A stretch of DNA of 64,000 nt from Planctomycetales bacterium 10988 (lineage in GTDB: Bacteria > Planctomycetota > Planctomycetia > Pirellulales > Pb10988): the NCBI GenBank assembly GCA_009664345.1, contig CP043547.1, forward strand, positions 4,802,709 through 4,866,708, written 5' to 3'. A model generated the notes under the pieces. It searched no databases, was not told the origin of the DNA, and saw nothing but the letters and a program-made list of their open reading frames with translations. The position numbers and the translations under genes were made by a program. Within the stretch, counting starts at the first letter, position 1; every line of letters begins with the position of its first letter. Shown piece by piece: positions 39,537-53,115 of this stretch.

Positions 39537-42104
39537 ATGGTTACGATGGGGCCAAGCAACATGTTGTCGAAAGCGTGGGGACGAGGAAAGAGTGAGGAGA
39601 CCTTTCTTCAATTGGAACGTTTGGAATCACGGTGTCTGCTCGATGCCGTTCCGCTTTTAATTGACCTCGTTCCAGGAGGCGGCCATTCTTCGCCGGAAGA
39701 GTTCGCAGAGGTTAACGGGACGCTTTTCTTTTCCACCGACGCAGGAGGTTTCAATTGGGAACTTTGGAAAAGTGACGGCACCGCTCCCGGTACGCAACTC
39801 GTCAAAGATATCTACGAAGGGGGGGGAGCCTCCTCTCCGTATGGTCTGACGAATGTGAACGGCACCCTCTTCTTTCGAGCCTTTCAACTAAGCACCGGGT
39901 TTGAACTGTGGCGGAGCGATGGAACTTCCGCCGGAACGCAACTTGTCAAAGATTTACCCGGCGAGAGTCTTAGCCCGACCAGTTTGACGAATGTCAACGG
40001 AACCCTTCTGTTTGTCGGAGATGACGCCAGCTACGGGGGGGAACTTTGGCGAAGTGATGGCACTTCCAATGGCACGGTCCTCGTCCGAGATATTTTCAGC
40101 GGCACCAGCGATTCCGACCCTCGGGACTTGACCAATATCAACGGAACGCTCTACTTTTCCGCCAGTAATAACGCCGTCGGTCGAGAACTTTGGCGAAGTG
40201 ATGGAACGTTTTCCGGAACACAATTGGTCGCCGATCTCACGCCAAGCGGGAGTTCCGATTTACGACGTCTCACGAATGTGAACGGCACCCTCTTTTTCTA
40301 TGGCCCGACCGATGGCGCTGGGGGAGAACTTTGGAAAAGCGATGGAAGTTTTCTCGGGACGCAGATTGTCAAAGAGCTTGATCCGATGGGGTCGTTTTCG
40401 GCTGCTCCTTATGATTTAACCAATGTGAATGGTACCCTTTTCTTCCGGGCAACCACGGATTCGTATGGTTTTGAACTTTGGCGGAGCGATGGAACCTATG
40501 CAGGCACCTCTTTAATTCGGGATATTCGTCCTGGCGACGATGGCTCAAGTCCCCGGCAAGAGACCTTCGTGAATGTGAATGGTACCCTTTTCTTCACTGC
40601 CAACAACGGGGGAAATGGCTATGAACTCTGGCGTTCCGATGGCACCTTCGGCGGAACCTTTCTGGTCAAGGATATCAACCCAGGCAGCGACCCAAGTCTT
40701 CCCCTTGAACTGATGAACGCGGCTGGGACTCTCTTCTTCACCGCGAATCAAGATAGCACCGGGCGTGAACTCTGGATCAGCGACGGGACGTACAACGGCA
40801 CCCAACTCGTCAAGGACTTGGCTCCCGGCTTTGAATCGGGAGAGATCGAGGAGATGACGAACGTCAACGGCACCCTCTTTTTTCATGGGGATGACAATAG
40901 CTACGGGTCCGAGTTGTGGGTGGTGCGAGATGTCGAACCGGGCGGTTTGATCGTGACTGGCACCGATTCCGGAACCGCCGGGGCCGTGCGGACGTTCAAT
41001 GGCGTCGGCAGCGAGCTATTGAGCTTTTTCCCTTATACCGAGGCTTTTACCGGGGGCGTGCGGATCGCGACCGGGGACATCAATGGTGATGGAATTCTTG
41101 ATATCGTGACGGCGGCTGGACCGGGCGGGGGGCCGCATGTGCAAGTTTTCAATAGCATCACCGGATCGCATTTGTTTGGTAGTCCGAACAATTTTTATGC
41201 CTATGCTCCCAACGTCACCGTCGGTCTTTTCGTCGCGGTGGGAGATGTGAATAACGATGGCTTCGACGATATCATTACTTCTGCCGATGCTGGCGGCGGG
41301 CCTCATATCAAGGTCTTCAGTGGACAAACCGGGGGCGTGATCACCGAGTTTTATGCCTACGCCCCTAATGTTACCGTGGGGGTTCGCATTGCTGCTGGAG
41401 ATATCGACGGCAATGGAACCGCGGAAATCATCACGTCTCCCGGACCCGGCGGCGGTCCCCACATACGGGTCTTCAGCGGAACGACCGGGGCGCAGATGCC
41501 CGGCCCGGCCACGAACTTTTATGCCTATGCTCCCAATGTTTTGACGGGGATTTATGTCGCTTCCGGCGATGTGAATAATGACGGCCTCGACGATATTATC
41601 ACGTCCCCTGGTGCAGGCGGCGGCCCGCATGTGCAGGTCTTCAGCTCAGCGGATGGAAGTCATTTGCAAAACTTTTACGCTTATCATCCCAACTTCACCG
41701 GCGGCGTGCGGGTGGGTGCGGCTGACCTGAACCTCGACGGTCATGCCGATATCCTCACGGTTCCGGGTTCTTCCGGGGGTCCGCACACCAGGGCCTTCGA
41801 CGGGACGAACTTGGCGAATTTGGCCAATTTCTTTTCGGGATCGCCAGGGAATCTTTCCGGTCTGTTCGTCACCGGAAGTGTCGGACTGATTCCTGTGGAA
41901 AATGCCGCCCCACTTTCGGCACCTTTTACTCTTCCTTCAACCACTTCCGCCATGTCCTCACCGTCGGAGGATTCCCAAGCACCGCTCCCACTTGAAACGT
42001 GGCAACCCAAGAAGGCCTGGTTCGAGGAGGTTGATCGATTCTATCAGCGGACCGAGGGGGTCGATTCCCTCTTTTCCGGCTTAGGGATTAAGGAATCAGG
42101 CTAG
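39537..42104 (+). CDS. Large secreted ELWxxDGT and FG-GAP-like repeat protein with N-terminal LExRxLL motif
   Basis: The N-terminus contains FLQLERLESRCLLDAVP, which fits the LEPR-XLL motif found at the start of many exported planctomycete proteins. Next come eight ELWxSDGT repeats of about 45-60 residues (ELWRSDGTSAGTQLVKD and similar) and a degenerate ninth, then five FG-GAP/VCBS-like repeats with calcium loops (GDINGDGILDIVTAAGPGGGPHVQVF type). Both modules form beta-propellers. A low-complexity tail ends it. It is probably a cell-surface or released adhesion protein; no enzyme motif is present. ATG 39537 is used but lacks a good ribosome site; ATG 39549 or 39564 is possible. Confidence 0.88.
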   Translation: MVTMGPSNMLSKAWGRGKSEETFLQLERLESRCLLDAVPLLIDLVPGGGHSSPEEFAEVNGTLFFSTDAGGFNWELWKSDGTAPGTQLVKDIYEGGGASSPYGLTNVNGTLFFRAFQLSTGFELWRSDGTSAGTQLVKDLPGESLSPTSLTNVNGTLLFVGDDASYGGELWRSDGTSNGTVLVRDIFSGTSDSDPRDLTNINGTLYFSASNNAVGRELWRSDGTFSGTQLVADLTPSGSSDLRRLTNVNGTLFFYGPTDGAGGELWKSDGSFLGTQIVKELDPMGSFSAAPYDLTNVNGTLFFRATTDSYGFELWRSDGTYAGTSLIRDIRPGDDGSSPRQETFVNVNGTLFFTANNGGNGYELWRSDGTFGGTFLVKDINPGSDPSLPLELMNAAGTLFFTANQDSTGRELWISDGTYNGTQLVKDLAPGFESGEIEEMTNVNGTLFFHGDDNSYGSELWVVRDVEPGGLIVTGTDSGTAGAVRTFNGVGSELLSFFPYTEAFTGGVRIATGDINGDGILDIVTAAGPGGGPHVQVFNSITGSHLFGSPNNFYAYAPNVTVGLFVAVGDVNNDGFDDIITSADAGGGPHIKVFSGQTGGVITEFYAYAPNVTVGVRIAAGDIDGNGTAEIITSPGPGGGPHIRVFSGTTGAQMPGPATNFYAYAPNVLTGIYVASGDVNNDGLDDIITSPGAGGGPHVQVFSSADGSHLQNFYAYHPNFTGGVRVGAADLNLDGHADILTVPGSSGGPHTRAFDGTNLANLANFFSGSPGNLSGLFVTGSVGLIPVENAAPLSAPFTLPSTTSAMSSPSEDSQAPLPLETWQPKKAWFEEVDRFYQRTEGVDSLFSGLGIKESG

Positions 42105-42226: not shown

Positions 42227-44035
42227 ATGAATCAACAGAATTTTAGCGGATCGACCTTTCTGACAAGTCTGTTCCTTGTCTGCCTTAGCCTCTTTGTGGT
42301 AGCTCCACAACCTGCATTTTCCGCCCCGCTGAACCTTGAAAAGCTCGGCGAAAGCGTCGGCCATCTCCGCCTAACGGATATGTTCGGAGATCAATCGATC
42401 GGTGGAACGGGCTTTTTGATTCACCGTAAAGGTCTGGTAGCAACGAACTTCCATGTGATCGAGTCGGCCACGGGAGGCGAATTTGAATTCGATGACGGCA
42501 AGGTTGTCCAGATCACCGGCGTTGTCGCCTCCGCTCCCGAGCAAGACTTAGCGATTGTCCAACTGGAAAGCGTTCCCTCCGGCATCGAGCCGTTGCGGAT
42601 GAACTCCCGCTCGCCGCTGAAGCTGGGAAGTATCGTCTGGGCGATCGGCTATCCGCAGGGGCTTCGCACCGTGAGTAGTGGCCAAGTGAACGCCATTCGC
42701 ACAACTGCGGATTTCCCGCCGAGTTTCCAGGAATTTCTAGGGGAAGAGAAAAACAATCGCTGGATTCAAACCAATGCGGTCTTGGCCCCGGGGAGTTCCG
42801 GCGGGCCGCTGCTCGATGGGTTGGGGAATGTCGTCGGCGTCAATAGTTGGATCATCCAAAGTCAGCAGATGGGTTTCGCGCTCCACATTCAACACCTGGA
42901 GCAACTCTATCGCAAGCACCTCAGCGACGAGCCAAAGCCGTTCGATCCCGGTTCTTCGGGAGGTCTGGATGTCCTGTCGCAAATCTCCCCGGAAGTGGCC
43001 GCGATTATCTCCGACATCGGCGAAAAGCAGATCAACGATTCGCAACGCGTTTCGATTCAGCAGCGTCTGCTGACCCTGGCTGGTCGCAATTCGGGAACGT
43101 TTACCTCGCTGCAATCCTGGTTCTTCGCCGTCATGCTGACCAAGAACGAACGCGATCCGAACAGTCAAAGCTATTCCGATGAACATGAACGCCTCCGCGA
43201 AGCCCTTGCCGGGTTGATGCGGTATCATATGATCGAGCCGGGTTCCGAAGGCGTGATCGAAAAGATCGCCCTCCGTTTGGCCCTGACGACCTATCCTTCG
43301 ACCAACTATTTCATGCAACGGGCCCTCTATTTGGCGGAAGATCGTCAGAATAAATCACTCGAGGCAATGGCCCTCTTCGCGATGCTCTCCAATGAAGTCC
43401 GTTCGCTGGTCAGCTTTTCCAAAACGCATCCTTCCATCAATGCCCTCCTCGCCCGGCGACGGCTGGTCGAGATGAAGTTCGATCAGTTGCAGAAGAACCA
43501 GGCCAGTTTCAAAATCGACGGCCAATCCGCGGGGCAATTGCTCGATCATCTCCGCTATGAGTTCGATCACCTGATGCCGGGGGCGAAAGCCCTTTCGGTG
43601 AGCGGTCGAGCGGTCACGGGTCGCCCGATGGAGCTAGAGGACTTTCGCGGCAAGGTGGTCGTCCTTGACTTCTTCGCCAATTGGTGCCCGCACTGTCGCA
43701 ATATGTATGGGTATGAACGCGAGATGGTCGAGAAGTATAAGGACCAGCCGTTCGCCCTGCTCGGCTACAACACCGAGGATGAGCGAACCGTTCAGGAACT
43801 CGTCCGCAATCGAGAAATCACTTGGCCGACCTGGGTGAACGACCCTCGCGAAAATGTGACTAACCGCTGGCGAGTCAGTTCGTTCCCGACCCTCTTCGTG
43901 ATCGATGCCGATGGCTACATTCGCTATCAAATCGGCGGCAACCCCGGCGAAGACTTCCTCAACACCTGCGTCGAAAAACTCCTCAAAGAAAAAGAACGCA
44001 CCTCCACCGCCCGGAAAGATTCCACGGTCAGGTAA
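42227..44035 (+). CDS. Secreted trypsin-like protease fused to a TlpA-like thioredoxin domain
   Basis: A signal peptide (1-32, cleavage near FSA) precedes a trypsin-2-like domain (about 40-230) with His76 (ATNFHVIES), Asp107 (EQDLAIVQL) and Ser191 (APGSSGGPL): the full triad. A helical middle part (about 250-440) is unrecognised. The C-terminal thioredoxin fold (about 455-590) carries WCPHC (Cys487, Cys490) and the cis-Pro site SSFPTLFVID, as in TlpA/ResA proteins that reduce or oxidise thiols outside the cytoplasm. Fusion of the two is unusual and suggests joint folding and proteolysis control in the envelope. Only 11 nt separate it from the convergent LysR gene. Confidence 0.92.
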   Translation: MNQQNFSGSTFLTSLFLVCLSLFVVAPQPAFSAPLNLEKLGESVGHLRLTDMFGDQSIGGTGFLIHRKGLVATNFHVIESATGGEFEFDDGKVVQITGVVASAPEQDLAIVQLESVPSGIEPLRMNSRSPLKLGSIVWAIGYPQGLRTVSSGQVNAIRTTADFPPSFQEFLGEEKNNRWIQTNAVLAPGSSGGPLLDGLGNVVGVNSWIIQSQQMGFALHIQHLEQLYRKHLSDEPKPFDPGSSGGLDVLSQISPEVAAIISDIGEKQINDSQRVSIQQRLLTLAGRNSGTFTSLQSWFFAVMLTKNERDPNSQSYSDEHERLREALAGLMRYHMIEPGSEGVIEKIALRLALTTYPSTNYFMQRALYLAEDRQNKSLEAMALFAMLSNEVRSLVSFSKTHPSINALLARRRLVEMKFDQLQKNQASFKIDGQSAGQLLDHLRYEFDHLMPGAKALSVSGRAVTGRPMELEDFRGKVVVLDFFANWCPHCRNMYGYEREMVEKYKDQPFALLGYNTEDERTVQELVRNREITWPTWVNDPRENVTNRWRVSSFPTLFVIDADGYIRYQIGGNPGEDFLNTCVEKLLKEKERTSTARKDSTVR

Positions 44036-44046
44036 TTTTGCGATAA

Positions 44047-44976
44047 TTAAAAAGTACTTTTAGTTTTTGAATCTTGGAGAGTTCCTTGCACTTGGTTAAT
44101 GAGGGATTCTAAGGCGGGGGTGAGGCGGCGGCCTTTTTGCCACATGAAGACGATTTGGCGGTGGCCGAGATGAGGGCGAAGGGAGCGAACGGTCAGGCCG
44201 CGACAAAGTCGACCGGCGGGGCGGCCCGCGACGATGCCCAGGCCCATACCGACCTCGACGCATGCCAGGGTGAAGCCGCTGTTGTCGGTTTCGGCAGCGA
44301 TTTTCGGCTTCAATCCTTCCTTATGCAACGCTTGATCGAGGGCATCCCGGCCATACGTCCCCGGGGCCGTCACGATCAAATCATGCTTGACGATCTCTTT
44401 TAACGTCACCTTCTTGACCTTCGCGAAAGGATGACTTTCCGGGCAAACGGCCAAAAATTCGATCGAATAGGCCGGTTCATACTGGATCATCGGCGAATCT
44501 TGCTGAAAACCTGGCTCCAAGGTCAGAGCCAAATCGGCTTCTCCCGCTAGGATCAATTCTTCCGCCCGCTGATTGTTGCCGTGAATGATGTGCAGCTTAG
44601 TCTGCGTAAATTCCTCCCGAAACTGCGATAGCGGCGTGGCCAAATCCTCCAGCATCATGCGGACCCCGGTGACCAAAATCAGGTCCCGGTCGTCTTTGCC
44701 ATTTCCCGGTTGTACAATGTCGAAAGTCGATTCCAACCCGACCAAGAGTTCCACCAGACACGAATAAAGTTGATCGGCGGCCGGCGTGGCACAGACCCGA
44801 CGCCCAACTTTGCGGAAGAGTGGAACGCCGTAAAGCGTTTCGAGACCTTGGATATGTTGCCAAACCGTCGGCGTGGAGAGGCCCGACTCCCGCGCGGCCG
44901 CAGCATATCCGCCCTGTTCATAGACATCGCGAAAAGTGTGCAACTGCTGAACGCTAAGGTCATTCGAACGCATCAT
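44047..44976 (-). CDS. LysR-family transcriptional regulator
   Basis: The N-terminal winged HTH (about 5-65; LHTFRDVYEQGGYAAAARESGLSTPTVWQHIQGLE) and a LysR substrate-binding domain (about 95-300) are complete. The frame runs up to 45204, but MMRSNDLSVQQL at 44976 is where the family begins, with AGGA upstream. It is divergent from the MFS-led operon at 45145 with a 12-bp-armed palindrome in between, the classic arrangement in which LysR proteins control themselves and the neighbour operon in response to a pathway intermediate. The last codons overlap an AAAAGTACTTTT palindrome. Confidence 0.94.
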   Translation of the reverse strand: MMRSNDLSVQQLHTFRDVYEQGGYAAAARESGLSTPTVWQHIQGLETLYGVPLFRKVGRRVCATPAADQLYSCLVELLVGLESTFDIVQPGNGKDDRDLILVTGVRMMLEDLATPLSQFREEFTQTKLHIIHGNNQRAEELILAGEADLALTLEPGFQQDSPMIQYEPAYSIEFLAVCPESHPFAKVKKVTLKEIVKHDLIVTAPGTYGRDALDQALHKEGLKPKIAAETDNSGFTLACVEVGMGLGIVAGRPAGRLCRGLTVRSLRPHLGHRQIVFMWQKGRRLTPALESLINQVQGTLQDSKTKSTF

Positions 44977-44995
44977 TTCGACCGTCCTTTGAGGT

Positions 44996-45022
44996 ATTTC
45001 GTTCGGTGATACCGAATGAAAT
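44996..45022. promoter_or_regulatory. Probable LysR operator (27-bp interrupted palindrome)
   Basis: Arms ATTTCGTTCGGT (44996-45007) and ACCGAATGAAAT (45011-45022) are separated by GAT and match at 11 of 12 positions. It lies 20 nt upstream of the LysR start and about 120 nt before the MFS start. Confidence 0.7.
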
Positions 45023-45144
45023 TTTAGAATTATATTATTGAAGTAAATGTTAACTTGTTCTAGAATCCAACTTGTGCATTTTGCCAAGTCGATCAATCGG
45101 GTGCAACCTTCTTTATAATCAAAATGATCGTTTGAGATAGCCCA

Positions 45145-46533
45145 ATGAACGACTCGGCGGCAACGCATCAACGCTTTTTTTTGGTCGGCCTGCTTTTTTT
45201 GCATACGGTCAATACCTACCTCGATCGCGTCTGTATCTCGGCAGCGAAAGGCTCAATGCAGTCCGATATCGCTTTTCTCGATGATCAGATGATGGGTTAC
45301 ACCTTTGGGATTTTTGCGTTGGGATATGCCCTGTTTCAAATACCGGCGGGTTGGTTCAGCGATCGGGCAGGTCCGAGGTGGGCACTCACGATCGTGGTGA
45401 TGCTGTGGAGTTGTTTCACGGCGATGACCGGGGCGGTGATGACGGCGGTGTCGTTGTTGGTCGTTCGCTTCCTCTTTGGAGTGGGGGAAGCCGGTGCTTT
45501 TCCCGGAGCGACCCGGGCACTCTATCATTGGCTGCCTGCTAAAGAACGCGGTCTCGGCCAAGGAATCTTCCTCTCAGGCGCCCGCCTCGGAGCAGCCTTG
45601 GCCTTGTTGGTCATGCCGATCTTGATCGATGAAATCGGTTGGCGAATGATGTTTGTCGTGAACGGGGTCCTTGGCATTGGGTGGGCGGCCGTTTGGGCGT
45701 GGTGGTATCGTAATCAACCGGAGGAACATGCCTGGACGAATGCCGCGGAGGTGGTTCACATCAAGTCCGGCATTGAGTCGTTCCCCTCTTCCGGCGAGAC
45801 GATCCCTTTCCTCCAAGTCGTCACCTCTTCAAATGTACTTTTTGCAATGTTCCAATACGCCGCCAGTAACATCACCTTTTTCATCAGCATCACTTGGCTG
45901 CGGCCTTACATCGAAGATCAGTGGGGAGCCGACGAGGCGAACCTTGCTTTCGTGCCGCTCCTCTTCGGGGCCTTTGCCCTTTGGCTGTCCGGCTATCTCA
46001 CCAAAAAACTCTATGAAGTCGGGTGGCCAGTCGCATCGCGTCGCATTCCGGCGATGCTCGGCTTTTCCATTTCAGCAATTGGGCTATTGCTCTGCACGCA
46101 AACCACGGAGTTTGAGAACGTCTGGCCATTGATCCTCTGTTTTTCGCTGGCCATGTTCGGAGTCGAGATGACGCTGAGCCCGAGCTGGACCTTTTGCATG
46201 GACCTCGGCAAGGAACGTTCTGGGGCGGTTTCCGGGGCAATGAATATGGTGGGCAATCTCGGGGCGGCACTGAGTGCGGTGCTCTTTCCTTTCTTTGTGG
46301 CCGAGGTGACGCTGCCGTTTATTGCGGAAACGCCCGGCACGGCGAATTCGTTTTTTGTCTTTGCCGCGGGCATGAATGGCTTCGCGGTGATCGCCTGGAG
46401 CATGATGAATTCAGAAGTAGCTGGGAGAAAACTTACCCGGCGGCAGTTGCAACTTCGCCTTGCTGGCTTTGCGAGTTTGATTAGCCTCGTGATCGCCGTC
46501 TTGATTTATTCGCAATTTTTCTTGGAGCGGTGA
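45145..46533 (+). CDS. MFS transporter, anion:cation symporter (ACS) type
   Basis: The 462-aa protein has 12 membrane segments with the MFS loop 2-3 motif (GWFSDRAGPRWAL) and the ACS-like start (NTYLDRVCISAA) and helix 5 region (EAGAFPGATRALYHWLPAKERG). Known ACS members carry sugar acids such as hexuronates, glucarate or galactonate with protons. It is the first gene of the operon facing the LysR regulator and overlaps the next gene by one base (TGATG). This makes it the likely uptake step of the pathway. Confidence 0.93.
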   Translation: MNDSAATHQRFFLVGLLFLHTVNTYLDRVCISAAKGSMQSDIAFLDDQMMGYTFGIFALGYALFQIPAGWFSDRAGPRWALTIVVMLWSCFTAMTGAVMTAVSLLVVRFLFGVGEAGAFPGATRALYHWLPAKERGLGQGIFLSGARLGAALALLVMPILIDEIGWRMMFVVNGVLGIGWAAVWAWWYRNQPEEHAWTNAAEVVHIKSGIESFPSSGETIPFLQVVTSSNVLFAMFQYAASNITFFISITWLRPYIEDQWGADEANLAFVPLLFGAFALWLSGYLTKKLYEVGWPVASRRIPAMLGFSISAIGLLLCTQTTEFENVWPLILCFSLAMFGVEMTLSPSWTFCMDLGKERSGAVSGAMNMVGNLGAALSAVLFPFFVAEVTLPFIAETPGTANSFFVFAAGMNGFAVIAWSMMNSEVAGRKLTRRQLQLRLAGFASLISLVIAVLIYSQFFLER

Positions 46534-47597
46534 TGCCGGATCGTCGATTGCGTGGGGTCGGCATCGGGGCCGGCTACTTCAGTCAGTACCACTATGAGGC
46601 CTGGTCCCGCATTGCTGAAGTTGACCTCGTCGCGGTGTGCGATCTCGATGCGGAAAAGGCAAAGCGAGCGGCCCAGCGGTATGGCATCCCTCGACACTAT
46701 CATGAGGTTTGCGAAATGCTTGACCGGGAGAAGCCTGACTTCGTGGACATCATCACGCGGCCCGATTCGCACTTGGCGTTCGTTCGGGAGGCAGCCGCAC
46801 GCGGGATGGCCATCATTTGCCAGAAGCCCCTTGCCCCGACAACCGCCGAAGCGACCGTGCTTGTCGAAACGGCTGAAGCTGCTGGCGTGCGGCTGATGGT
46901 TCATGAAAACTTTCGCTTTCAGCCTTGGCATCGAGAAATCAAAAGGCTGCTAGATCAGAAGATTCTCGGGGAAAAACTGCACTCGATCCAAATTCAGACG
47001 CGGCTGGGTGACGGATGGCAAGCGGACGCCTATCAAGCGAGACAACCCTATTTCCGTGAGATGCCCCGCTTTTTAATTTACGAGACTGGAGTGCATTTCA
47101 TTGATACCTTGCAATATCTCTTCGGCCCTATCGATGGAGTTTCGGCGATCCTCCGTCGGCAAAATCAAGAAATCTTTGGGGAGGATGCTGGGGTCGTCTG
47201 CTTTGAATTTTCAAATAGCGCTTTTGGTGTTTGGAACGTCAGCCGCTTTCATGAATCACCCGCGGAGAACACACGCTATACTTTCGGCGAGTTCTTGATC
47301 GAAGGAGAAGAGGGTTCTCTTCGGCTCAATGAAGAGGGAGAACTTTTTCTAAAACCGCTTGGTCAACCAGAACAGAAACATGACTATATTCCTTCGAAAG
47401 TGAATTTCGCCGGGGATTGCGTTTATGAAACCCAAAAGCACTTTTGTGATTCCCTCCTCCATGAGCAACCCTTTGAAACAAGCGGCCTCGACTATCTGCA
47501 AGTGATGCGAATCATGGACTGCATTTATGAAGCCGCTGCGGCTGGCAAAACGATTCGGGGCCTAAGCAAGAAGGACTCTTCCCATGCGAGTAATTGA
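46533..47597 (+). CDS. Gfo/Idh/MocA-family oxidoreductase
   Basis: An N-terminal Rossmann domain (GVGIGAGYFSQYHY, about 8-22; acidic Asp37 in VCDLDAEKA, suggesting NAD preference) is followed by a C-terminal alpha/beta substrate domain. The usual EKP motif reads QKP (Gln97-Lys98-Pro99), keeping the catalytic Lys; a conserved His lies in GVHFIDTLQYL. Family members oxidise or reduce sugars and inositols at one hydroxyl. ATG 46533 overlaps the MFS stop and follows TTGGAG. It overlaps the next gene by 14 nt, so tight co-translation is likely. Confidence 0.92.
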   Translation: MPDRRLRGVGIGAGYFSQYHYEAWSRIAEVDLVAVCDLDAEKAKRAAQRYGIPRHYHEVCEMLDREKPDFVDIITRPDSHLAFVREAAARGMAIICQKPLAPTTAEATVLVETAEAAGVRLMVHENFRFQPWHREIKRLLDQKILGEKLHSIQIQTRLGDGWQADAYQARQPYFREMPRFLIYETGVHFIDTLQYLFGPIDGVSAILRRQNQEIFGEDAGVVCFEFSNSAFGVWNVSRFHESPAENTRYTFGEFLIEGEEGSLRLNEEGELFLKPLGQPEQKHDYIPSKVNFAGDCVYETQKHFCDSLLHEQPFETSGLDYLQVMRIMDCIYEAAAAGKTIRGLSKKDSSHASN

Positions 47598-48237
47598 TTT
47601 GACATTGCCTCTCGACTCGAAAATGGCCGGGTTTCAGATCGAAAATGCAGACCGGCTAGAGACGGAAGGTTGGAATGCGACCTACTTAACGATGTATTCC
47701 CATTGCGGAACCCATATGGATGCTAAAAAGCACTTTTTAAAAGATGGAGCATCCATCGACCAGCAACTACTAGAGGATCTGATCGGACCAGCCTTGGTCC
47801 TTGATATTACTCCGGTTGTGCCGAAGCAATTGATCGGCATTGCGGACCTTCAACCATTTGAAAAAGCGATCACTCCTGGTTGTCGAATTTTGCTGCGGAC
47901 GGACTGGTACCATCGCTACGGCGAATCCATCTATCGAGATGAATTGCCGCGTATTTCCCTGGAATTAGCGACTTGGCTGGTAAAGAAAGAGGTATGTCTG
48001 CTGGGAGTCGAACCTCCCTCAGTGGCAGACATCGGGAATATCGAAGAGTTGACGCAAGTGCATGAAGTCTTGCTCGGTGGCGGAGTCGTCATCGTCGAGG
48101 GTCTTGCTAATCTCGATCAACTCAGAACACAAAAAGTACATTTTATAGCATTGCCTTTGAAGATTGTCGGTGGAGACGGTTCTCCGGTGCGTGCCGTGGC
48201 AGTCGAGGGTGATGAATTTTTAAGTGATCAACTTTAG
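47584..48237 (+). CDS. Cyclase-family (kynurenine formamidase-like) metal hydrolase
   Basis: The 217-aa protein has the family signature HCGTHMDAKKHF (HxGTHxDxxxHF) that binds the metal, and the C-terminal AVAVEGDEF. Members hydrolyse amides or lactones (formamidase, isatin hydrolase) or act on sugar-derived cyclic compounds. In this operon a lactonase role after oxidation by the Gfo/Idh/MocA enzyme is plausible, but that is inference. The signature is written in DNA containing an AAAAAGCACTTTTT element (47725-47738). Confidence 0.9.
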   Translation: MRVIDLTLPLDSKMAGFQIENADRLETEGWNATYLTMYSHCGTHMDAKKHFLKDGASIDQQLLEDLIGPALVLDITPVVPKQLIGIADLQPFEKAITPGCRILLRTDWYHRYGESIYRDELPRISLELATWLVKKEVCLLGVEPPSVADIGNIEELTQVHEVLLGGGVVIVEGLANLDQLRTQKVHFIALPLKIVGGDGSPVRAVAVEGDEFLSDQL

Positions 48238-48247
48238 ACAATTGACT

Positions 48248-49345
48248 ATGAACATTTATCGAATTGCTGTTTTGCCAGGGGATGGGATCGGTCCAGAGGT
48301 CATGAAGGCAACGCGTCAGGTGCTTGATCATGTCGTTGGGAAGTCGCCGCCAGTTCGGCTTGATTGCATCGAATACCAGGCGGGGGCAGAAGTTTACCGG
48401 AAAACCGGCGAGGCATTGCCGCAGGCGGTGTTGCAGGCTTGCCTTGATGCGGATGCCGTTTTGCTTTCCGCGATTGGTTTGCCTGACGTTCGAAAGCCGG
48501 ATGGGACCGAAGTTCAGCCGGAGATGATGGTCGGTTTGCGTCGTGCCTTGAATGTTCACTCGGCAGTGCGGCCAGTGAAACTCTTTCCCGGTGTTTCTTG
48601 TCCTTTGAAAGAGACAAGGCAGGGGATTGATTTCGTCGTGGTCCGCGAAAACTTGGAAGGGCTATTTGCATCGTTCGGAGGCGGCGGCCTTGTCGGAAAT
48701 GAAGTTGCGACGGATACGATGGTGATCACAAGGCAAGGAACAAGCAAGGTGGTAGAATATGCCTTCCGGTTGGCCGCTCGTAGAAATGGACGTGCTGCCG
48801 ATGGCAAACGAAAAGTGACTTGCGTGGATAAAGCGAATGTTTTTCGCAGCTTTGCCTTCTTTCGAAAAGTGTTTTTTGAGATTTCCGAGCATCATCCTGA
48901 GATAACGGCTGAGGCTGTTTACGTCGATGCCATGAGCCTCTATATGGTACAAAACCCTTGGGATTTTGATGTTTTGGTAACAGAAAATCAGTTCGGTGAT
49001 ATCCTCTCTGATCTAGGAGCCGGGATCGTCGGAGGGTTGGGGCTGGCACCATCGGCGGAAATCGGGGATCGACACGCTCTCTTTCAACCCTCGCACGGGA
49101 CTGCCCCGGACCTTGCCGGAAAGAACCTCGCCAACCCGCTCGCGATGATTCTTTCCGCCGCGATGATGCTGGATTGGCTAGGGGAAAGAAATCAAGACAA
49201 GACATGTATTCATCTCGCCCGACAAATCGAAAACGCCGTGGAAAAAGTTTTGCACGAGAAAAAAATTCATACCCCGGACCTCGGAGGTACCGCCACGACT
49301 TCGGAGGTAGCGGAAGCCGTCATCGGCCAAATCGACAAAATTTAA
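48248..49345 (+). CDS. Isocitrate/isopropylmalate dehydrogenase-family (tartrate dehydrogenase-like) enzyme
   Basis: This family oxidises and usually decarboxylates 2-hydroxy diacids (isocitrate, 3-isopropylmalate, malate, tartrate) with NAD(P) and a divalent metal. Present: N-terminal IAVLPGDGIGPEV; the substrate loop VVRENLEGLFASF, which differs from the usual RENTE, RELTGG and RENSEGEY forms; catalytic DKANVF; metal site DAMSLYMVQNP...VTENQFGDILSDLGAG; and the cofactor site HGTAPDLAGKNLANP. The substrate is therefore not clear; tartrate or a sugar diacid fits the operon. ATG 48248, 10 nt after the previous stop, is preferred over GTG 48224. Confidence 0.9.
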   Translation: MNIYRIAVLPGDGIGPEVMKATRQVLDHVVGKSPPVRLDCIEYQAGAEVYRKTGEALPQAVLQACLDADAVLLSAIGLPDVRKPDGTEVQPEMMVGLRRALNVHSAVRPVKLFPGVSCPLKETRQGIDFVVVRENLEGLFASFGGGGLVGNEVATDTMVITRQGTSKVVEYAFRLAARRNGRAADGKRKVTCVDKANVFRSFAFFRKVFFEISEHHPEITAEAVYVDAMSLYMVQNPWDFDVLVTENQFGDILSDLGAGIVGGLGLAPSAEIGDRHALFQPSHGTAPDLAGKNLANPLAMILSAAMMLDWLGERNQDKTCIHLARQIENAVEKVLHEKKIHTPDLGGTATTSEVAEAVIGQIDKI

Positions 49346-49395
49346 AAACTGCTTTTTATTAATCTAACTTTCATTCCCAATTGAGAAAGACTCCC

Positions 49396-51309
49396 ATGAA
49401 TTGCCCCCGCATCGCCGCCTGCCGTTTGCTCCTACTATTCAGTTTTGTCTCGCTTTGTAACCTAACTGCTGGAATGCTTGCCGCTCGGGAAGATGGGGAT
49501 GGAACGGTCACGATCTCCGGGGAACTCCGGGTTTGGCATAATGTCATTCTCACTTTGGATGGTCCATTCGCCCAGGAATCGGACACGCAACCCAATCCGT
49601 TTACCGACCTTTCTTTTGATGTAACATTCACGCATTCTGATGGAACCGCTTATCAAGTCCCCGGTTATTTTGCGGCAGACGGCAATGCTGCCAACACTTC
49701 TGCTGAACAGGGGAACAAGTGGCGTGTGCATTTTGCTCCTGATCGCAAGGGCGATTGGAAATACAAAATCTCCTTTTTTCAAGGGAAAAATGCCGCTTTG
49801 GACTCCGCGTCCCGTACGACTCCCTTATCCCCCTATCATGGTCTTCAGGGTGAGTTCACAATCCAGCCGAGTGATAAAACAGGACGAGACTTCCGCAAAC
49901 AAGGCCGATTGCAATATATTAAAAATCGCTATTTGCAATTTGCAGAAAGTAAAAAATACTTTTTGAAAGTGGGAGCGGACGCCCCGGAGACCCTCCTTGG
50001 TTACACCGATTTCGATAATACTATCGCCGAGAAGTCGGGGCGGGTTCCGCTTAAAACCTGGGAACCGCATCTTCAGGATTGGCAGGAAGGGGACCCGAGT
50101 TGGCAGGAGGGAAAAGGGAAAGGGCTGATCGGTGCCATCAATTATCTCTCGGGCAAAGGGTGCAATGCTTTTTCTTTTTTAACCTATAACGCAGGGGGAG
50201 ATGGCGATAATGTTTGGCCGTTCATCGCTCGTGACGACAAGCTGCATTACGATTGTAGCAAGCTCGATCAATGGGGAATCGTTTTCGAACACGGAACACA
50301 AAAGGGGATGTACTTGCATTTTAAAATGCAGGAGACGGAGATGGATGACAATGTTCGTTCTAAAAGCTCCAAGGTGGTTCCCGAGTCGCTGGATGGTGGG
50401 GACCTGGGGATCGAGCGGAAGCTTTATTGCCGGGAGCTGGTTGCTCGGTTCGGTCACAACCTGGCGTTGAATTGGAATCTTGGCGAGGAAAATACGCAAA
50501 CGACCGAACAGCAGAAGGCGATGCTTGACTATCTCGCCGAGATCGATCCTTACCATCACCCCCGCGTTTTGCATACTTATCCGAATCAACAAGACGAGGT
50601 TTATCGCCCTCTACTGGGGAAAAAGTCGAAGTTGACCGGGGTTTCTCTGCAAAATAGTGCGATCGCCGACACGCATATCCAGACGATCAAGTGGGTTTCG
50701 GAATCCGAGGAGGCGGGCAAGCCGTGGGTGGTGGCCTTCGATGAATCGGGGAGTGCCGCGCATGGGCAATGCCCGGACTTGGGCTATCAAGGTTTCGATG
50801 GCCGCGATAAGACCGGGAAAAAAGTCTATACCGAACATGAAGTCCGTCACCAAACCTTGTGGGGAACTTTGATGGGCGGCGGTGCCGGGGTGGAATATTA
50901 TTTCGGTTATCAGTTCGTGGAAAACGACCTGGTTTGCGAAGACTGGCGAAGTCGCGACCGAAGTTGGGACTACTGCCGGATCGCCATCGAGTTCTTTCAC
51001 AACCATGCGATTCCTTTTTGGGAGATGGCGAGTCACGATGCGTTGATCGGCAATCCAAAAAGTACGAATGAGAAGTATTGCTTTGCAAAAGAGGGCGAAG
51101 TGTATCTTATTTACGTGCCGAAAGGGGGAACGACACAGCTTGATTTGCGAAAGCAGAACGGCGAATATACCGTGCAGTGGTTCAATCCGCGTGAAGGTGG
51201 CGAGTTGCTTCAAGGATCGATTGCATCGGTTCAAGCAGGAGCGAAGGTTCAGCTTGGCACTCCTCCAAGCGATGATCAAAAAGATTGGCTGATCCTGATT
51301 CGTCGCTAG
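49396..51309 (+). CDS. Secreted DUF5060-domain glycoside hydrolase-like protein
   Basis: A signal peptide ([20 protein letters not shown], cleavage near LAA) precedes an N-terminal DUF5060 beta-sandwich (about 45-165; [36 protein letters not shown]), a (beta/alpha)8-type domain (about 180-540) with candidate acid residues in NWNLGEEN and WVVAFDESG, and a C-terminal beta domain with [12 protein letters not shown] as in the putative collagen-binding domain of similar enzymes. It probably cleaves a polysaccharide or glycoside outside the cell, feeding the operon. The exact glycoside is unknown. The gap of 50 nt to the previous gene suggests the same operon. The TTG at 49381 is a weaker start. 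Confidence 0.85.
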
Positions 51310-51474
51310 AAAACTCCAATATTTACTGTGAAAAACTTCGTTGGGATTCGGGGGTGGGCGGCTTTTCAGCTTGGCTTCAACCTGCCATGATAGGGAGTTG
51401 TAGCAGCCAAGGTTTCTCCTTGGATGAACCGTAATGTGCCCCCGAATTTGTCCCAACGTGTTTGGAGAAAGCGA

Positions 51475-53115
51475 ATGACTGCCCAGCTCCCAGAACCTTT
51501 TTCGCACCCCCAGCGAAAGCCGCATCAAGTGCAACTGATTGCTAGCGGGGACCTCCGCGAGTCCGCGAATCGAGTCTGTTGGCCAGCCCAAGCCGAGATG
51601 GAACAGGCGTTGCAACAAGCGATCGAAGCGTCCGACTTCGAGGTGATTCGTTGCCATCCTTATCATGAAGAGCGGGGCCACGGCTTTATTTCCTCGCAAC
51701 GGGAAGGGCTGGAGGTCTTTCGGAACATCGATCCCGAGGCCCCGCTGATTGTCGCGGAGGCAGTTTGGCAATATTCGCATCATGTCCTCGCCGGGCTGAC
51801 AACGCATCGCGGGCCGATCTTGACGGTTGCGAACTGGTCAGGGCAGTGGCCGGGTCTGGTCGGCATGCTCAACCTCAACGGTTCCCTCATCAAGGCCGGG
51901 GTAAAGTTCTCTACACTGTGGGCCGAGGATTTTAGCGATCCGGCTTTCACGGAGAAGCTTTCGGCTTGGCTGAAAGGGGAGCCGATCGAACACCCGATCG
52001 AGCACGTTTCGACTTTTGATTCCAAGAGCGTTCCCGCCGAAGCCCAGCAATTGGGAGAAGCTTTGGCCACGCAACTTCAGCAAGAAAAGGCGATTATGGG
52101 CGTCTTCGATGAAGGGTGCATGGGGATGTTCAATGCGATTATCCCTGACCATCTGCTGAATCCGTGTGGGATTTTCAAGGAACGGCTCAGTCAATCCGCT
52201 CTCTATTACGAGTCGAAGCAAGTCCCGGACGAGGAGGCCCTCGCTGTTCTCAGTTGGCTGGAATCAGCGGGCATGAACTTTCATTGGGGCGAGAAACATG
52301 AGGAAGATTTGACTAAAGCCCAGGTCCTTGACCAGTGTCGGATGTATGTCGCGGCCTTGCGGATTGCCGATGATTTTGGCTGCGATACGATCGGGATTCA
52401 GTATCAACAGGGGCTAAAGGACTTGCTGCCTGCCAGTGATCTCGTGGAGGGAACGCTCAACAATACTGAACGTCCTCCGGTGAAAAGCCGTTGTGGAGGG
52501 CGAGTTCTTTATGAGGGTCAACCGCTGGTTCATTTCAACGAGGTTGACGAATGTGCCGGGCTGGATGCCTTGATGACCTACCGCGTGCATCGTGCTTTGG
52601 AGCAGCCGGTCGAAAATACCCTGCACGATCTACGATGGGGTGATCATGACGCATCCGGCACGGTCGATGATTATGTTTGGGTGTTGGAAATCAGCGGGGC
52701 CGCCCCACCCGCTCACTTTATCAATGGTTGGCAAGGAGCCGAGGGTTTCCGGCAGCCGGCGATGTATTTTCCCAATGGCGGAAGTACACTCCGCGGGATT
52801 TCCAAACCTGGTGAGATTGTCTGGTCGCGGGTTTATGTAAAGGACGACGGCCTTCACCTTGATCTTGGCCGGGCCTCGGTCGTGGAACTTCCCGCGGAAG
52901 AAACCGAGCGACGATGGCAAGAGACCACTTGGCAATGGCCGATTATGCATGCTGTTTTACACGGCGTTTCGCGTGATCAGATGATGGCGCGCCACCCAAG
53001 TAATCACATTCAAGTCGCCTATGCTAATTCCGCGGAAGAGGCCGATCTTGCCATGCATGCTAAAGCAGCCTTTGCTCAACAGCTTGGAATTCAAGTGTTT
53101 TATTGTGGAGTGTAG
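51475..53115 (+). CDS. L-fucose isomerase-like protein
   Basis: The 546-aa protein shows the fucose/arabinose isomerase-type three-domain fold by layout: an N-terminal Rossmann-like domain ([26 protein letters not shown]), a middle domain ([27 protein letters not shown]) with the acidic metal-binding residue, and a C-terminal part (HATSG...-like [15 protein letters not shown]). Members convert an aldose to a ketose using Mn2+. The family match rests on these patterns and is not certain at the substrate level. ATG 51475 has GGAG at 51463-51466 and is preferred over ATG 51424. A terminator follows. Confidence 0.75.

What the first reader, a model, noticed from the sequence alone, without database searches (positions are those of the whole stretch)
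45145..53115. LysR-controlled operon of unmatched composition, a possible new sugar or sugar-acid pathway
In order: MFS/ACS permease, Gfo/Idh/MocA oxidoreductase (EKP motif changed to QKP), cyclase-family hydrolase, IPMDH/tartrate-DH-family enzyme with an atypical RENLEGLF substrate loop, secreted DUF5060 glycosidase-like protein and fucose-isomerase-like protein. The first three genes overlap, so they are co-translated. A consistent scheme would be secreted cleavage, uptake, oxidation to a lactone, hydrolysis, and oxidative decarboxylation of the diacid, with an isomerase entry branch. I know no described pathway with this set; the scheme is inference.
Basis: partly seen in the sequence, partly recalled or inferred. 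Interest (0 to 1): 0.75.

Follow-up and report, generated by a model that had tools for sequence, protein, structure and literature searches.

The report
Conserved sugar-acid catabolic operon in planctomycetes
This planctomycete operon is a conserved bacterial gene set, probably for breaking down a sugar through its lactone and acid, built around a dehydrogenase whose usual catalytic tyrosine is a phenylalanine; which sugar it eats, and how this organism finishes the pathway, is still unknown.

Summary
In detail: a LysR gene faces MFS, Gfo/Idh/MocA (GFO), cyclase-family (CYC), IPMDH-family, DUF5060 and fucose-isomerase-like genes. The core is conserved, not a chance mixture: many planctomycete relatives keep MFS, GFO, CYC, [OtnK, OtnC], IPMDH and DUF5060 together. 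In other phyla the IPMDH-GFO pair often sits with an SMP-30 lactonase instead of CYC, which suggests that CYC is a lactonase. OtnK and OtnC are relatives of E. coli YgbK and YgbL (3-oxo-tetronate kinase and its phosphate decarboxylase). In the IPMDH-like enzyme the catalytic Tyr is Phe; the 83 aligned sequences with Phe form one clade, while the Arg, Lys and Asp residues are invariant. Best reading: sugar to lactone to aldonate, then 3-oxidation without decarboxylation, then OtnK/OtnC to DHAP, a variant of the four-carbon acid-sugar pathways without LtnD and OtnI. This organism has no DUF1537 kinase and only distant OtnC relatives, so its last steps are unknown. The fucose-isomerase-like gene is not part of the conserved set. 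Diacid oxidative decarboxylation is less likely but open. Substrate and all reactions are inferred, not shown.

The parts
44047..44976 (-). LysR-family regulator, divergent from the operon (listed ORF 44047-45204; start placed near 44976 by homology)
   Evidence: Pfam HTH_1 and LysR_substrate; LysR relative within 10 kb of the IPMDH relative in 10 of 23 planctomycete loci
45145..46533 (+). MFS permease, nearest curated model D-galactonate transporter (anion:cation symporter type); likely imports the substrate
   Evidence: MFS_1 3.6e-50; NCBIfam D-galactonate transporter 205 bits, under its cut-off of 395; within 10 kb of the IPMDH relative in 11 of 23 planctomycete loci
46533..47597 (+). Gfo/Idh/MocA dehydrogenase (GFO), proposed sugar 1-dehydrogenase forming a lactone (ORF from GTG 46530)
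   Evidence: PF01408 2.5e-24; closest solved structure 5uhw, E 7.7e-45, Z 40.4 against 36.2 for the next entry
47584..48237 (+). Cyclase-family hydrolase (CYC, PF04199), proposed lactonase
   Evidence: PF04199 3.8e-28; HCGTHMDA stretch in the sequence (its role as metal motif is recalled); SMP-30 gene present and CYC absent in 16 of 20 GFO-linked loci of other phyla
48248..49345 (+). IPMDH-family dehydrogenase with Phe148 (numbered in the ORF from GTG 48224) at the catalytic-Tyr position; proposed non-decarboxylating 3-dehydrogenase of an aldonate
   Evidence: PF00180 7.8e-97
49396..51309 (+). Probably secreted DUF5060 / apiosidase-like / Collagen_bind_2 protein, proposed glycosidase
   Evidence: PF16586 and PF12904; hydrophobic N-terminus in the sequence; within 10 kb of the IPMDH relative in 12 of 23 planctomycete loci; predicted model too poor to use
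51424..53115 (+). L-fucose-isomerase-like protein; last gene here but not part of the conserved module
   Evidence: Sub-cut-off Fucose_iso matches; unlinked elsewhere

Best explanation
The operon is the planctomycete form of a conserved catabolic module. A probably secreted DUF5060 protein releases a sugar or sugar acid; the MFS permease imports it; the Gfo/Idh/MocA enzyme oxidises it to a lactone; the cyclase-family enzyme hydrolyses the lactone; the IPMDH-family enzyme, in which Phe replaces the catalytic Tyr, oxidises the hydroxyl beta to the carboxylate without decarboxylating, giving a 3-oxo acid. In relatives the 3-oxo acid (probably 3-oxo-tetronate) is phosphorylated by OtnK (DUF1537) and decarboxylated by OtnC to dihydroxyacetone phosphate, so the IPMDH-like enzyme would replace both LtnD and OtnI of the known threonate/erythronate pathway. 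Gene linkage, the residue change and the presence or absence of genes are shown; every reaction, the substrate and the order of steps are inferred. This organism has no DUF1537 kinase and only distant OtnC relatives, so its final steps are unknown.
For: The 80 loci used are the best 80 of at least 584 found in a capped scan. Within 10 kb of the IPMDH relative, in 23 planctomycete loci (several truncated): MFS 11, GFO 10, CYC 11, DUF5060 12, OtnK 6, OtnC 8. In 57 loci of other phyla: GFO 20, SMP-30 16 (all 16 beside GFO), CYC 0; no locus has both lactonase families. A Sulfitobacter plasmid has IPMDH-family, Gfo/Idh/MocA, TRAP, an annotated 3-oxo-tetronate kinase and aldolase, and a gene annotated as N-acyl homoserine lactonase family. 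The L035 OtnK and OtnC are 41% and 50% identical to E. coli YgbK and YgbL. In the OtnK tree YgbK pairs with L049 (0.98) inside the IPMDH-linked planctomycete clade; 12 IPMDH-linked and 7 LtnD/OtnI-linked sequences need 4 changes, and 67 of 1000 shuffles need as few (loci that hold both kinds counted as LtnD/OtnI-linked, unlabelled and duplicate sequences left out). DUF1537 with E of 1e-69 or better: 6 of 9 sampled phylum genomes with an IPMDH relative at about 62% identity or more, 3 of the other 383 (Fisher p 1.4e-9; threshold chosen after seeing the list, relatedness ignored); any DUF1537: 6 of 9 against 11 of 383, p 2e-7. Phe at the catalytic-Tyr column in 72 of the 80 loci and in 28 of 30 GFO-linked ones; Tyr in 21 of 21 more distant relatives that were fetched (2 own-genome, 19 phylum); Arg triad, Lys and three Asp the same in 114 of 114 aligned rows, a few of them duplicates; the 83 Phe tips form one clade, support 0.64. 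YgbJ and YgbM relatives within 10 kb in 0 of 23 planctomycete loci. The three- and four-step threonate routes: PMC12540250, passages.
Against: The window's genome has no DUF1537 and only 28-33% relatives of OtnC. DUF1537 was also not found in 8 of the 23 planctomycete locus genomes (all 8 are titled MAG, and one of them, L033, has OtnC beside IPMDH, so incompleteness is likely for some), nor in 2 more of the 9 sampled phylum genomes, one of them a single contig rated 100% complete (G291). No dihydroxyacetone kinase (PF02733) was found in any of 11 genomes tested, so a bypass through free dihydroxyacetone by that kinase is not supported. Some loci show the IPMDH relative alone: L037, L048 and L053 have none of GFO, CYC, DUF5060, OtnK in view, nor has L194; 37 of 57 loci of other phyla show no GFO (some truncated), so the Phe clade is wider than the module. 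L036 has GFO without a lactonase in view, L049 CYC, OtnK and OtnC without GFO. The Arg set kept here binds two carboxylates in known members (recalled), which fits a diacid. ACS and TRAP transporters usually carry acids, while the scheme starts from an aldehyde or hemiacetal (general knowledge). No natural tetrose source for the glycosidase is known to me. In the OtnC tree 14 IPMDH-linked and 6 LtnD/OtnI-linked sequences are mostly separate (2 changes; 2 of 1000 shuffles as low). L058, L087 and L109 have an OtnI relative near the IPMDH gene. No background rate was measured for DUF1537 in Proteobacteria.
Confidence: 0.5

Rival explanations
1. The IPMDH-like enzyme oxidatively decarboxylates a dicarboxylic sugar acid, for example one derived from an acidic or branched sugar; OtnK and OtnC in relatives then process the shortened product.
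For: Substrate Arg and the Lys/Asp set are the same in 114 of 114 rows; acid-type transporters beside it; solved relatives include tartrate dehydrogenase/decarboxylase; decarboxylation would remove the need for OtnC in organisms without it, such as this one.
Against: Catalytic Tyr replaced by Phe through the clade; a separate decarboxylase gene (OtnC) lies near it in 8 of 23 planctomycete loci.
Confidence: 0.22
2. The pathway is a D-apiose-type route: apiose to apionolactone to apionate, with the IPMDH-like enzyme in the place of the oxidoisomerase, a DUF1537 kinase and then a decarboxylase; the DUF5060 protein is an apiosidase.
For: Weak Apiosidase-domain match, under its cut-off; the nearest solved structure to the GFO is 5uhw, which I recall, from no call, as a D-apiose dehydrogenase (the PDB title says only oxidoreductase from Agrobacterium radiobacter); the published apionate route has apiose dehydrogenase, lactonase, oxidoisomerase, kinase and decarboxylase (PMC11747546, passages).
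Against: Only about 32% identity to 5uhw; OtnK and OtnC of relatives match YgbK and YgbL, annotated for C4 acids; an acyloin rearrangement is unknown in the IPMDH family (general knowledge).
Confidence: 0.12
3. The substrate is a pentose or hexose acid; OtnK- and OtnC-like enzymes act on a longer 3-oxo acid and release a ketose phosphate other than DHAP.
For: A GH62-like gene (arabinofuranosidase family) follows DUF5060 in L038, L039, L040 and L060 (Pfam on L039; similarity in the others); planctomycete OtnC sequences form their own group, with YgbL outside it.
Against: OtnK sequences of the cluster are not clearly separated from those linked to LtnD/OtnI.
Confidence: 0.12
4. Chance neighbourhood of unrelated genes.
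For: The fucose-isomerase-like gene does appear to be a local neighbour only.
Against: The remaining genes recur together in planctomycetes, and the IPMDH-GFO pair recurs in other phyla.
Confidence: 0.02

Closest known systems
Four-carbon acid-sugar (L-threonate / D-erythronate) pathway: LtnD or DenD, OtnI, OtnK, OtnC (E. coli ygbJKLM)
   Same: Relatives of the operon encode OtnK- and OtnC-like proteins (L035: 41% and 50% identical to YgbK and YgbL), lying between CYC and IPMDH in several loci
   Different: YgbJ and YgbM relatives are absent near the 23 planctomycete loci; an IPMDH-family dehydrogenase and an upstream dehydrogenase/lactonase pair take their place; the window organism has no DUF1537 kinase
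Three-step threonate bypass (LtnD, 2-OtnK, 2-OtnC; Guo et al. 2024 as cited in PMC12540250)
   Same: Also omits OtnI
   Different: Uses an F_bP_aldolase-type decarboxylase (as the paper states) and keeps LtnD; the OtnC of L035 is Aldolase_II
Tartrate / isopropylmalate / homoisocitrate dehydrogenase family
   Same: Sequence family and the catalytic Arg, Lys and Asp residues
   Different: Catalytic Tyr is Phe; none of the 16 NCBIfam models that match reaches its cut-off
D-apiose to D-apionate catabolism (apiose dehydrogenase, lactonase, oxidoisomerase, DUF1537 kinase, decarboxylase)
   Same: Same kinds of reaction; GFO nearest to 5uhw
   Different: Relatives of the oxidoisomerase and of the published decarboxylase were not sought here; the kinase of relatives is of the OtnK type

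Membership tests
Four-carbon acid-sugar pathway (OtnK/OtnC) | OtnK (DUF1537) in this organism | tested here: not met
   0 PF07005 matches in the window's own genome (genome 95.6% complete, one contig)
Four-carbon acid-sugar pathway (OtnK/OtnC) | OtnC (YgbL-type) in this organism | tested here: not met
   Only class II aldolase-like matches 28-33% identical, at two other sites
Four-carbon acid-sugar pathway (OtnK/OtnC) | OtnK and OtnC in the orthologous operons of relatives | tested here: met
   6 of 23 planctomycete loci (L035, L042, L044, L046, L049, L054) and 2 of 8 phylum regions (L195, L196)
Four-carbon acid-sugar pathway (OtnK/OtnC) | LtnD and OtnI beside them in planctomycete loci | tested here: not met
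   0 of 23 loci within 10 kb for both YgbJ and YgbM
Iso/isopropylmalate dehydrogenase family (PF00180) | Family match and Arg/Lys/Asp catalytic set | tested here: met
   PF00180 7.8e-97; residues kept
Iso/isopropylmalate dehydrogenase family (PF00180) | Catalytic tyrosine | tested here: not met
   Phe148
Tartrate dehydrogenase (TIGR02089) | Curated equivalog score | tested here: not met
   287.6 bits, cut-off 470.4
Kynurenine formamidase (arylformamidase, TIGR03035) | Curated equivalog score | tested here: not met
   87.9 bits, cut-off 223.05
Apiosidase-like family (PF13204) | Pfam gathering score of the catalytic domain | tested here: not met
   22.5 bits, cut-off 26.5; model too poor for a fold search
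L-fucose isomerase | Pfam gathering scores of Fucose_iso_C and Fucose_iso_N1 | tested here: not met
   27.9 of 29.3 bits and 21.3 of 28 bits
D-apiose dehydrogenase | Activity on D-apiose | not testable with these tools
   Nearest solved structure 5uhw at about 32% identity; its apiose function is recalled
Sugar lactonase role of the cyclase-family protein | Lactone hydrolysis | not testable with these tools
   Inferred from SMP-30 taking its place in other phyla

The most novel reading that the evidence does not exclude
The IPMDH superfamily contains a large clade, not described in the papers my searches listed, in which the catalytic Tyr has become Phe, turning oxidative decarboxylases into plain 3-dehydrogenases of short aldonates; with a Gfo/Idh/MocA dehydrogenase and one of several interchangeable lactonase families it forms a new, OtnI-free and LtnD-free entry into 3-oxo-tetronate metabolism in more than one bacterial phylum, and some lineages, this organism included, finish it by an unknown route without a DUF1537 kinase.
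Probability: 0.4. Interest if true: 0.65.

Novelty: new variant of a known kind. Interest (0 to 1): 0.52.

Why it matters
If right, a group of proteins that records name only by family (14 of 20 plasmid-borne relatives carry an isocitrate/isopropylmalate dehydrogenase family name; their Phe/Tyr state was not checked) gets a testable role, a cyclase-family protein gains a sugar-lactonase function, and one residue change would explain loss of decarboxylation in a classic enzyme family. It would also tie planctomycete glycan degradation to four-carbon acid-sugar metabolism.

Tried and rejected
Fucose-isomerase entry branch: rejected on linkage; of the 10 neighbours of such genes that were scanned in four other genomes, one, next to the gene in L199, is an FGGY kinase, which would fit an ordinary deoxy-sugar pathway. 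QKP as a special mark of the dehydrogenase: rejected, shared by 27 of 30 relatives and 5uhw. Dihydroxyacetone kinase as the replacement for OtnK: found in 0 of 11 genomes. Class II aldolases of the own genome as OtnC: only 28-33% identical, far from the operon. Structure of the DUF5060 protein: mean pLDDT 49, not used; a profile search of solved structures found nothing at E up to 1. Ten proteins downstream of IPMDH in loci mostly without DUF5060 in view gave no common substrate clue.

Papers. Searches and what was seen: 25 of 302 listed; 30 of 536; 4 of 4; DUF5060: 1 paper, on Lactobacillus, listing only; 1; 15 of 187; threonate with planctomycet and kinase: 0; 12 of 33; OtnK, tetronate kinase, IPMDH, tartrate dehydrogenase, threonate, erythronate: 20 of 56. 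Nothing listed describes this gene set by title or abstract start; the library holds open-licence papers only and unlisted papers were not seen. Passages were read of PMC13001218, PMC11747546, PMC10580937, PMC7535918, PMC12200840 and PMC12540250. Zhang 2016, Carter 2018 and Guo 2024 were not read; they are known through citing passages or recall. The role of the catalytic Tyr is recalled; PMC12200840 passages say that in mutant IDH1 Lys212 is the likelier proton donor and that a Y139D enzyme still catalyses the reaction, so loss of decarboxylation through Phe is not certain.

Tree and shuffle tests used duplicates-removed, labelled sequences only. An earlier count gave the CQKP count as 28 of 31; the count is 27 of 30.

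Full report
What is there. The window lies in a 6.65-Mb single-contig genome; its closest named matches are planctomycetes. A LysR gene on the minus strand faces six genes on the plus strand: MFS permease, Gfo/Idh/MocA oxidoreductase (GFO), cyclase-family hydrolase (CYC), IPMDH-family dehydrogenase, DUF5060 protein and fucose-isomerase-like protein. None of the NCBIfam models listed for the GFO, CYC and IPMDH-like proteins reaches its cut-off, so no standard function can be assigned that way.

Is the set real? In the 23 planctomycete loci, several cut short, the following lie within 10 kb of the IPMDH relative: MFS 11, GFO 10, CYC 11, LysR 10, DUF5060 12, OtnK 6, OtnC 8, fucose-isomerase-like 0. 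Eight regions fetched from a sample of the phylum show MFS 7, GFO 7, CYC 7, LysR 4, DUF5060 6, OtnK 2, OtnC 2, fucose-isomerase-like 0 (two of the eight appear to be the same contigs as named loci). Some relatives stand alone: L037, L048, L053 and the fetched L194 show none of the partners. The fucose-isomerase-like gene is found in 45 of 392 genomes of the phylum sample and lies elsewhere in the three other genomes (G064, G339, G381) that have it and an IPMDH relative of about 62% identity or more.

The lactonase. In 57 loci of other phyla, GFO is near the IPMDH relative in 20, and an SMP-30/gluconolactonase-type gene in 16, each time with GFO; CYC is in none of the 57, SMP-30 in none of the 23 planctomycete loci, and no locus has both. 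Four GFO loci show neither (L063, L071, L072, L081; L071 and L081 are short contigs), and among planctomycetes L036 has GFO without CYC in view. On a Sulfitobacter plasmid the same set carries instead a gene annotated as N-acyl homoserine lactonase family. Replacement of one gene by known lactonase families is the best evidence that CYC hydrolyses the lactone formed by GFO. It is inference; no assay was found or made. The nearest solved relatives of CYC are kynurenine formamidases, followed by other metal-dependent hydrolases and isatin hydrolases.

The missing pair. Six of the 23 planctomycete loci and two fetched regions carry a DUF1537 kinase and a class II aldolase-family protein between CYC and IPMDH. 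Those of L035 are 41% and 50% identical to E. [quoted passage not shown] In the genome of L034 the pair sits on another contig near a second DUF5060 gene (L189). In a sample of 392 genomes of the phylum, DUF1537 with E of 1e-69 or better occurs in 6 of the 9 genomes with an IPMDH relative at about 62% identity or more and in 3 of the other 383 (Fisher p 1.4e-9; relatedness not corrected, threshold chosen afterwards; with any DUF1537, 6 of 9 against 11 of 383, p 2e-7). Of 21 genomes from other phyla, 20 with a GFO gene in the fetched locus plus L109, 19 have a DUF1537 (no background rate was measured). No YgbJ or YgbM relative is near the IPMDH gene in the 23 planctomycete loci, whereas three loci of other phyla have each. 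In the OtnK tree, 12 IPMDH-linked and 7 LtnD/OtnI-linked sequences are not clearly separated (4 changes; 67 of 1000 shuffles as low); in the OtnC tree, 14 and 6 are more separated (2 changes; 2 of 1000), with YgbL beside the IPMDH-linked group. This points to a C4 3-oxo acid, not firmly.

The dehydrogenase. The 83 Phe sequences, window included, form one clade without Tyr members (support 0.64). Of 30 GFO-linked loci, 28 have Phe; 37 of the 57 loci of other phyla show no GFO in view, so the clade is wider than the module. If the Tyr serves the step after decarboxylation, the change fits a dehydrogenase that stops at the 3-oxo acid and leaves decarboxylation to OtnC. Against this, the Arg set fits a dicarboxylate, and simulation work on mutant IDH1 gives the Tyr a lesser role there (PMC12200840, passages).

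The known pathways. L-threonate is oxidised by LtnD, isomerised by OtnI, phosphorylated by OtnK and decarboxylated by OtnC to DHAP; a bypass without OtnI uses other kinase and decarboxylase types (PMC12540250, passages). Brucella needs OtnK to use erythronate (PMC10580937, passages). Apiose can be degraded with an apiose dehydrogenase, an apionolactonase, an apionate oxidoisomerase, a 3-oxoisoapionate kinase and a decarboxylase (PMC11747546, passages; that this kinase is a DUF1537 protein is recalled). The present set shares reaction types with both; LtnD and OtnI relatives are absent near the planctomycete IPMDH genes, and the apionate enzymes were not sought.

What remains open in this organism. 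Its own genome has no DUF1537, only distant class II aldolase relatives and no dihydroxyacetone kinase of family PF02733. DUF1537 was also not found in 8 of the 23 planctomycete locus genomes, all eight titled MAG, and one of them (L033) has OtnC next to IPMDH, so part of this is incompleteness; but two more of the nine sampled phylum genomes lack it, one of them in a single contig rated 100% complete (G291). So either the IPMDH-like enzyme does decarboxylate there, or an unknown route follows. Five genomes (of L036, L038, L039, L040, L060) show another state: their only DUF1537 match is of a lower-scoring type (E about 1e-47 to 1e-50) and lies about 100 bp from a CYC relative of 43-47% identity; in L187 GFO and MFS relatives stand beside these two.

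The glycosidase. The DUF5060 protein has a hydrophobic N-terminus and a sub-threshold match to the apiosidase domain. It is conserved at 63-69% identity to the window protein in the 12 relatives aligned. Most of these are about 900-1,100 residues long with an extra N-terminal part, which matches the GH115 C-terminal domain where tested (L033) and which the window protein lacks; relatives with short frames like the window's also exist. Relatives at E up to 1e-40 occur in 48 of 392 phylum genomes, many without a close IPMDH relative, so the protein also serves elsewhere. No solved relative was found and the predicted model was poor, so its substrate is unknown.

Verdict. A real, conserved operon; a variant of known acid-sugar catabolism with a distinctive dehydrogenase clade as its most novel element. 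The chemistry is a hypothesis at about even odds.

Noticed in passing
42227-44035 (+): One ORF joins an HtrA-like trypsin domain to a C-terminal thioredoxin/AhpC-TSA domain.
   Followed up: no
39537-42104 (+): ORF with ELWxxDGT and FG-GAP repeats.
   Followed up: no
L033 1994-5170 and relatives: Many DUF5060 relatives have an extra N-terminal part (GH115_C match in L033) that the window protein lacks.
   Followed up: partly
L187 6128-10597, L205 8512-10544: The genomes of loci L039 and L036 carry a second cluster: a diverged CYC with a different DUF1537 type (no PDB sequence match for the L187 protein), with GFO and MFS relatives beside it in L187.
   Followed up: partly
L282 3009-11769: Sulfitobacter plasmid with OtnK, aldolase, an annotated AHL-lactonase-family gene, a small quinol-monooxygenase-type gene, TRAP, IPMDH-family and GFO together.
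   Followed up: partly
L281 9025-11181: Aminobacter plasmid where an IPMDH-family gene is followed by an annotated cyclase-family gene, an SDR and an amidase, with no Gfo/Idh/MocA gene listed nearby.
   Followed up: no
L083 10001-12185: Two IPMDH-family genes in tandem.
   Followed up: no
L096: Locus in a MAG titled Klebsiella pneumoniae whose IPMDH relative groups with those of Burkholderiales-type records; the record title may be wrong.
   Followed up: no
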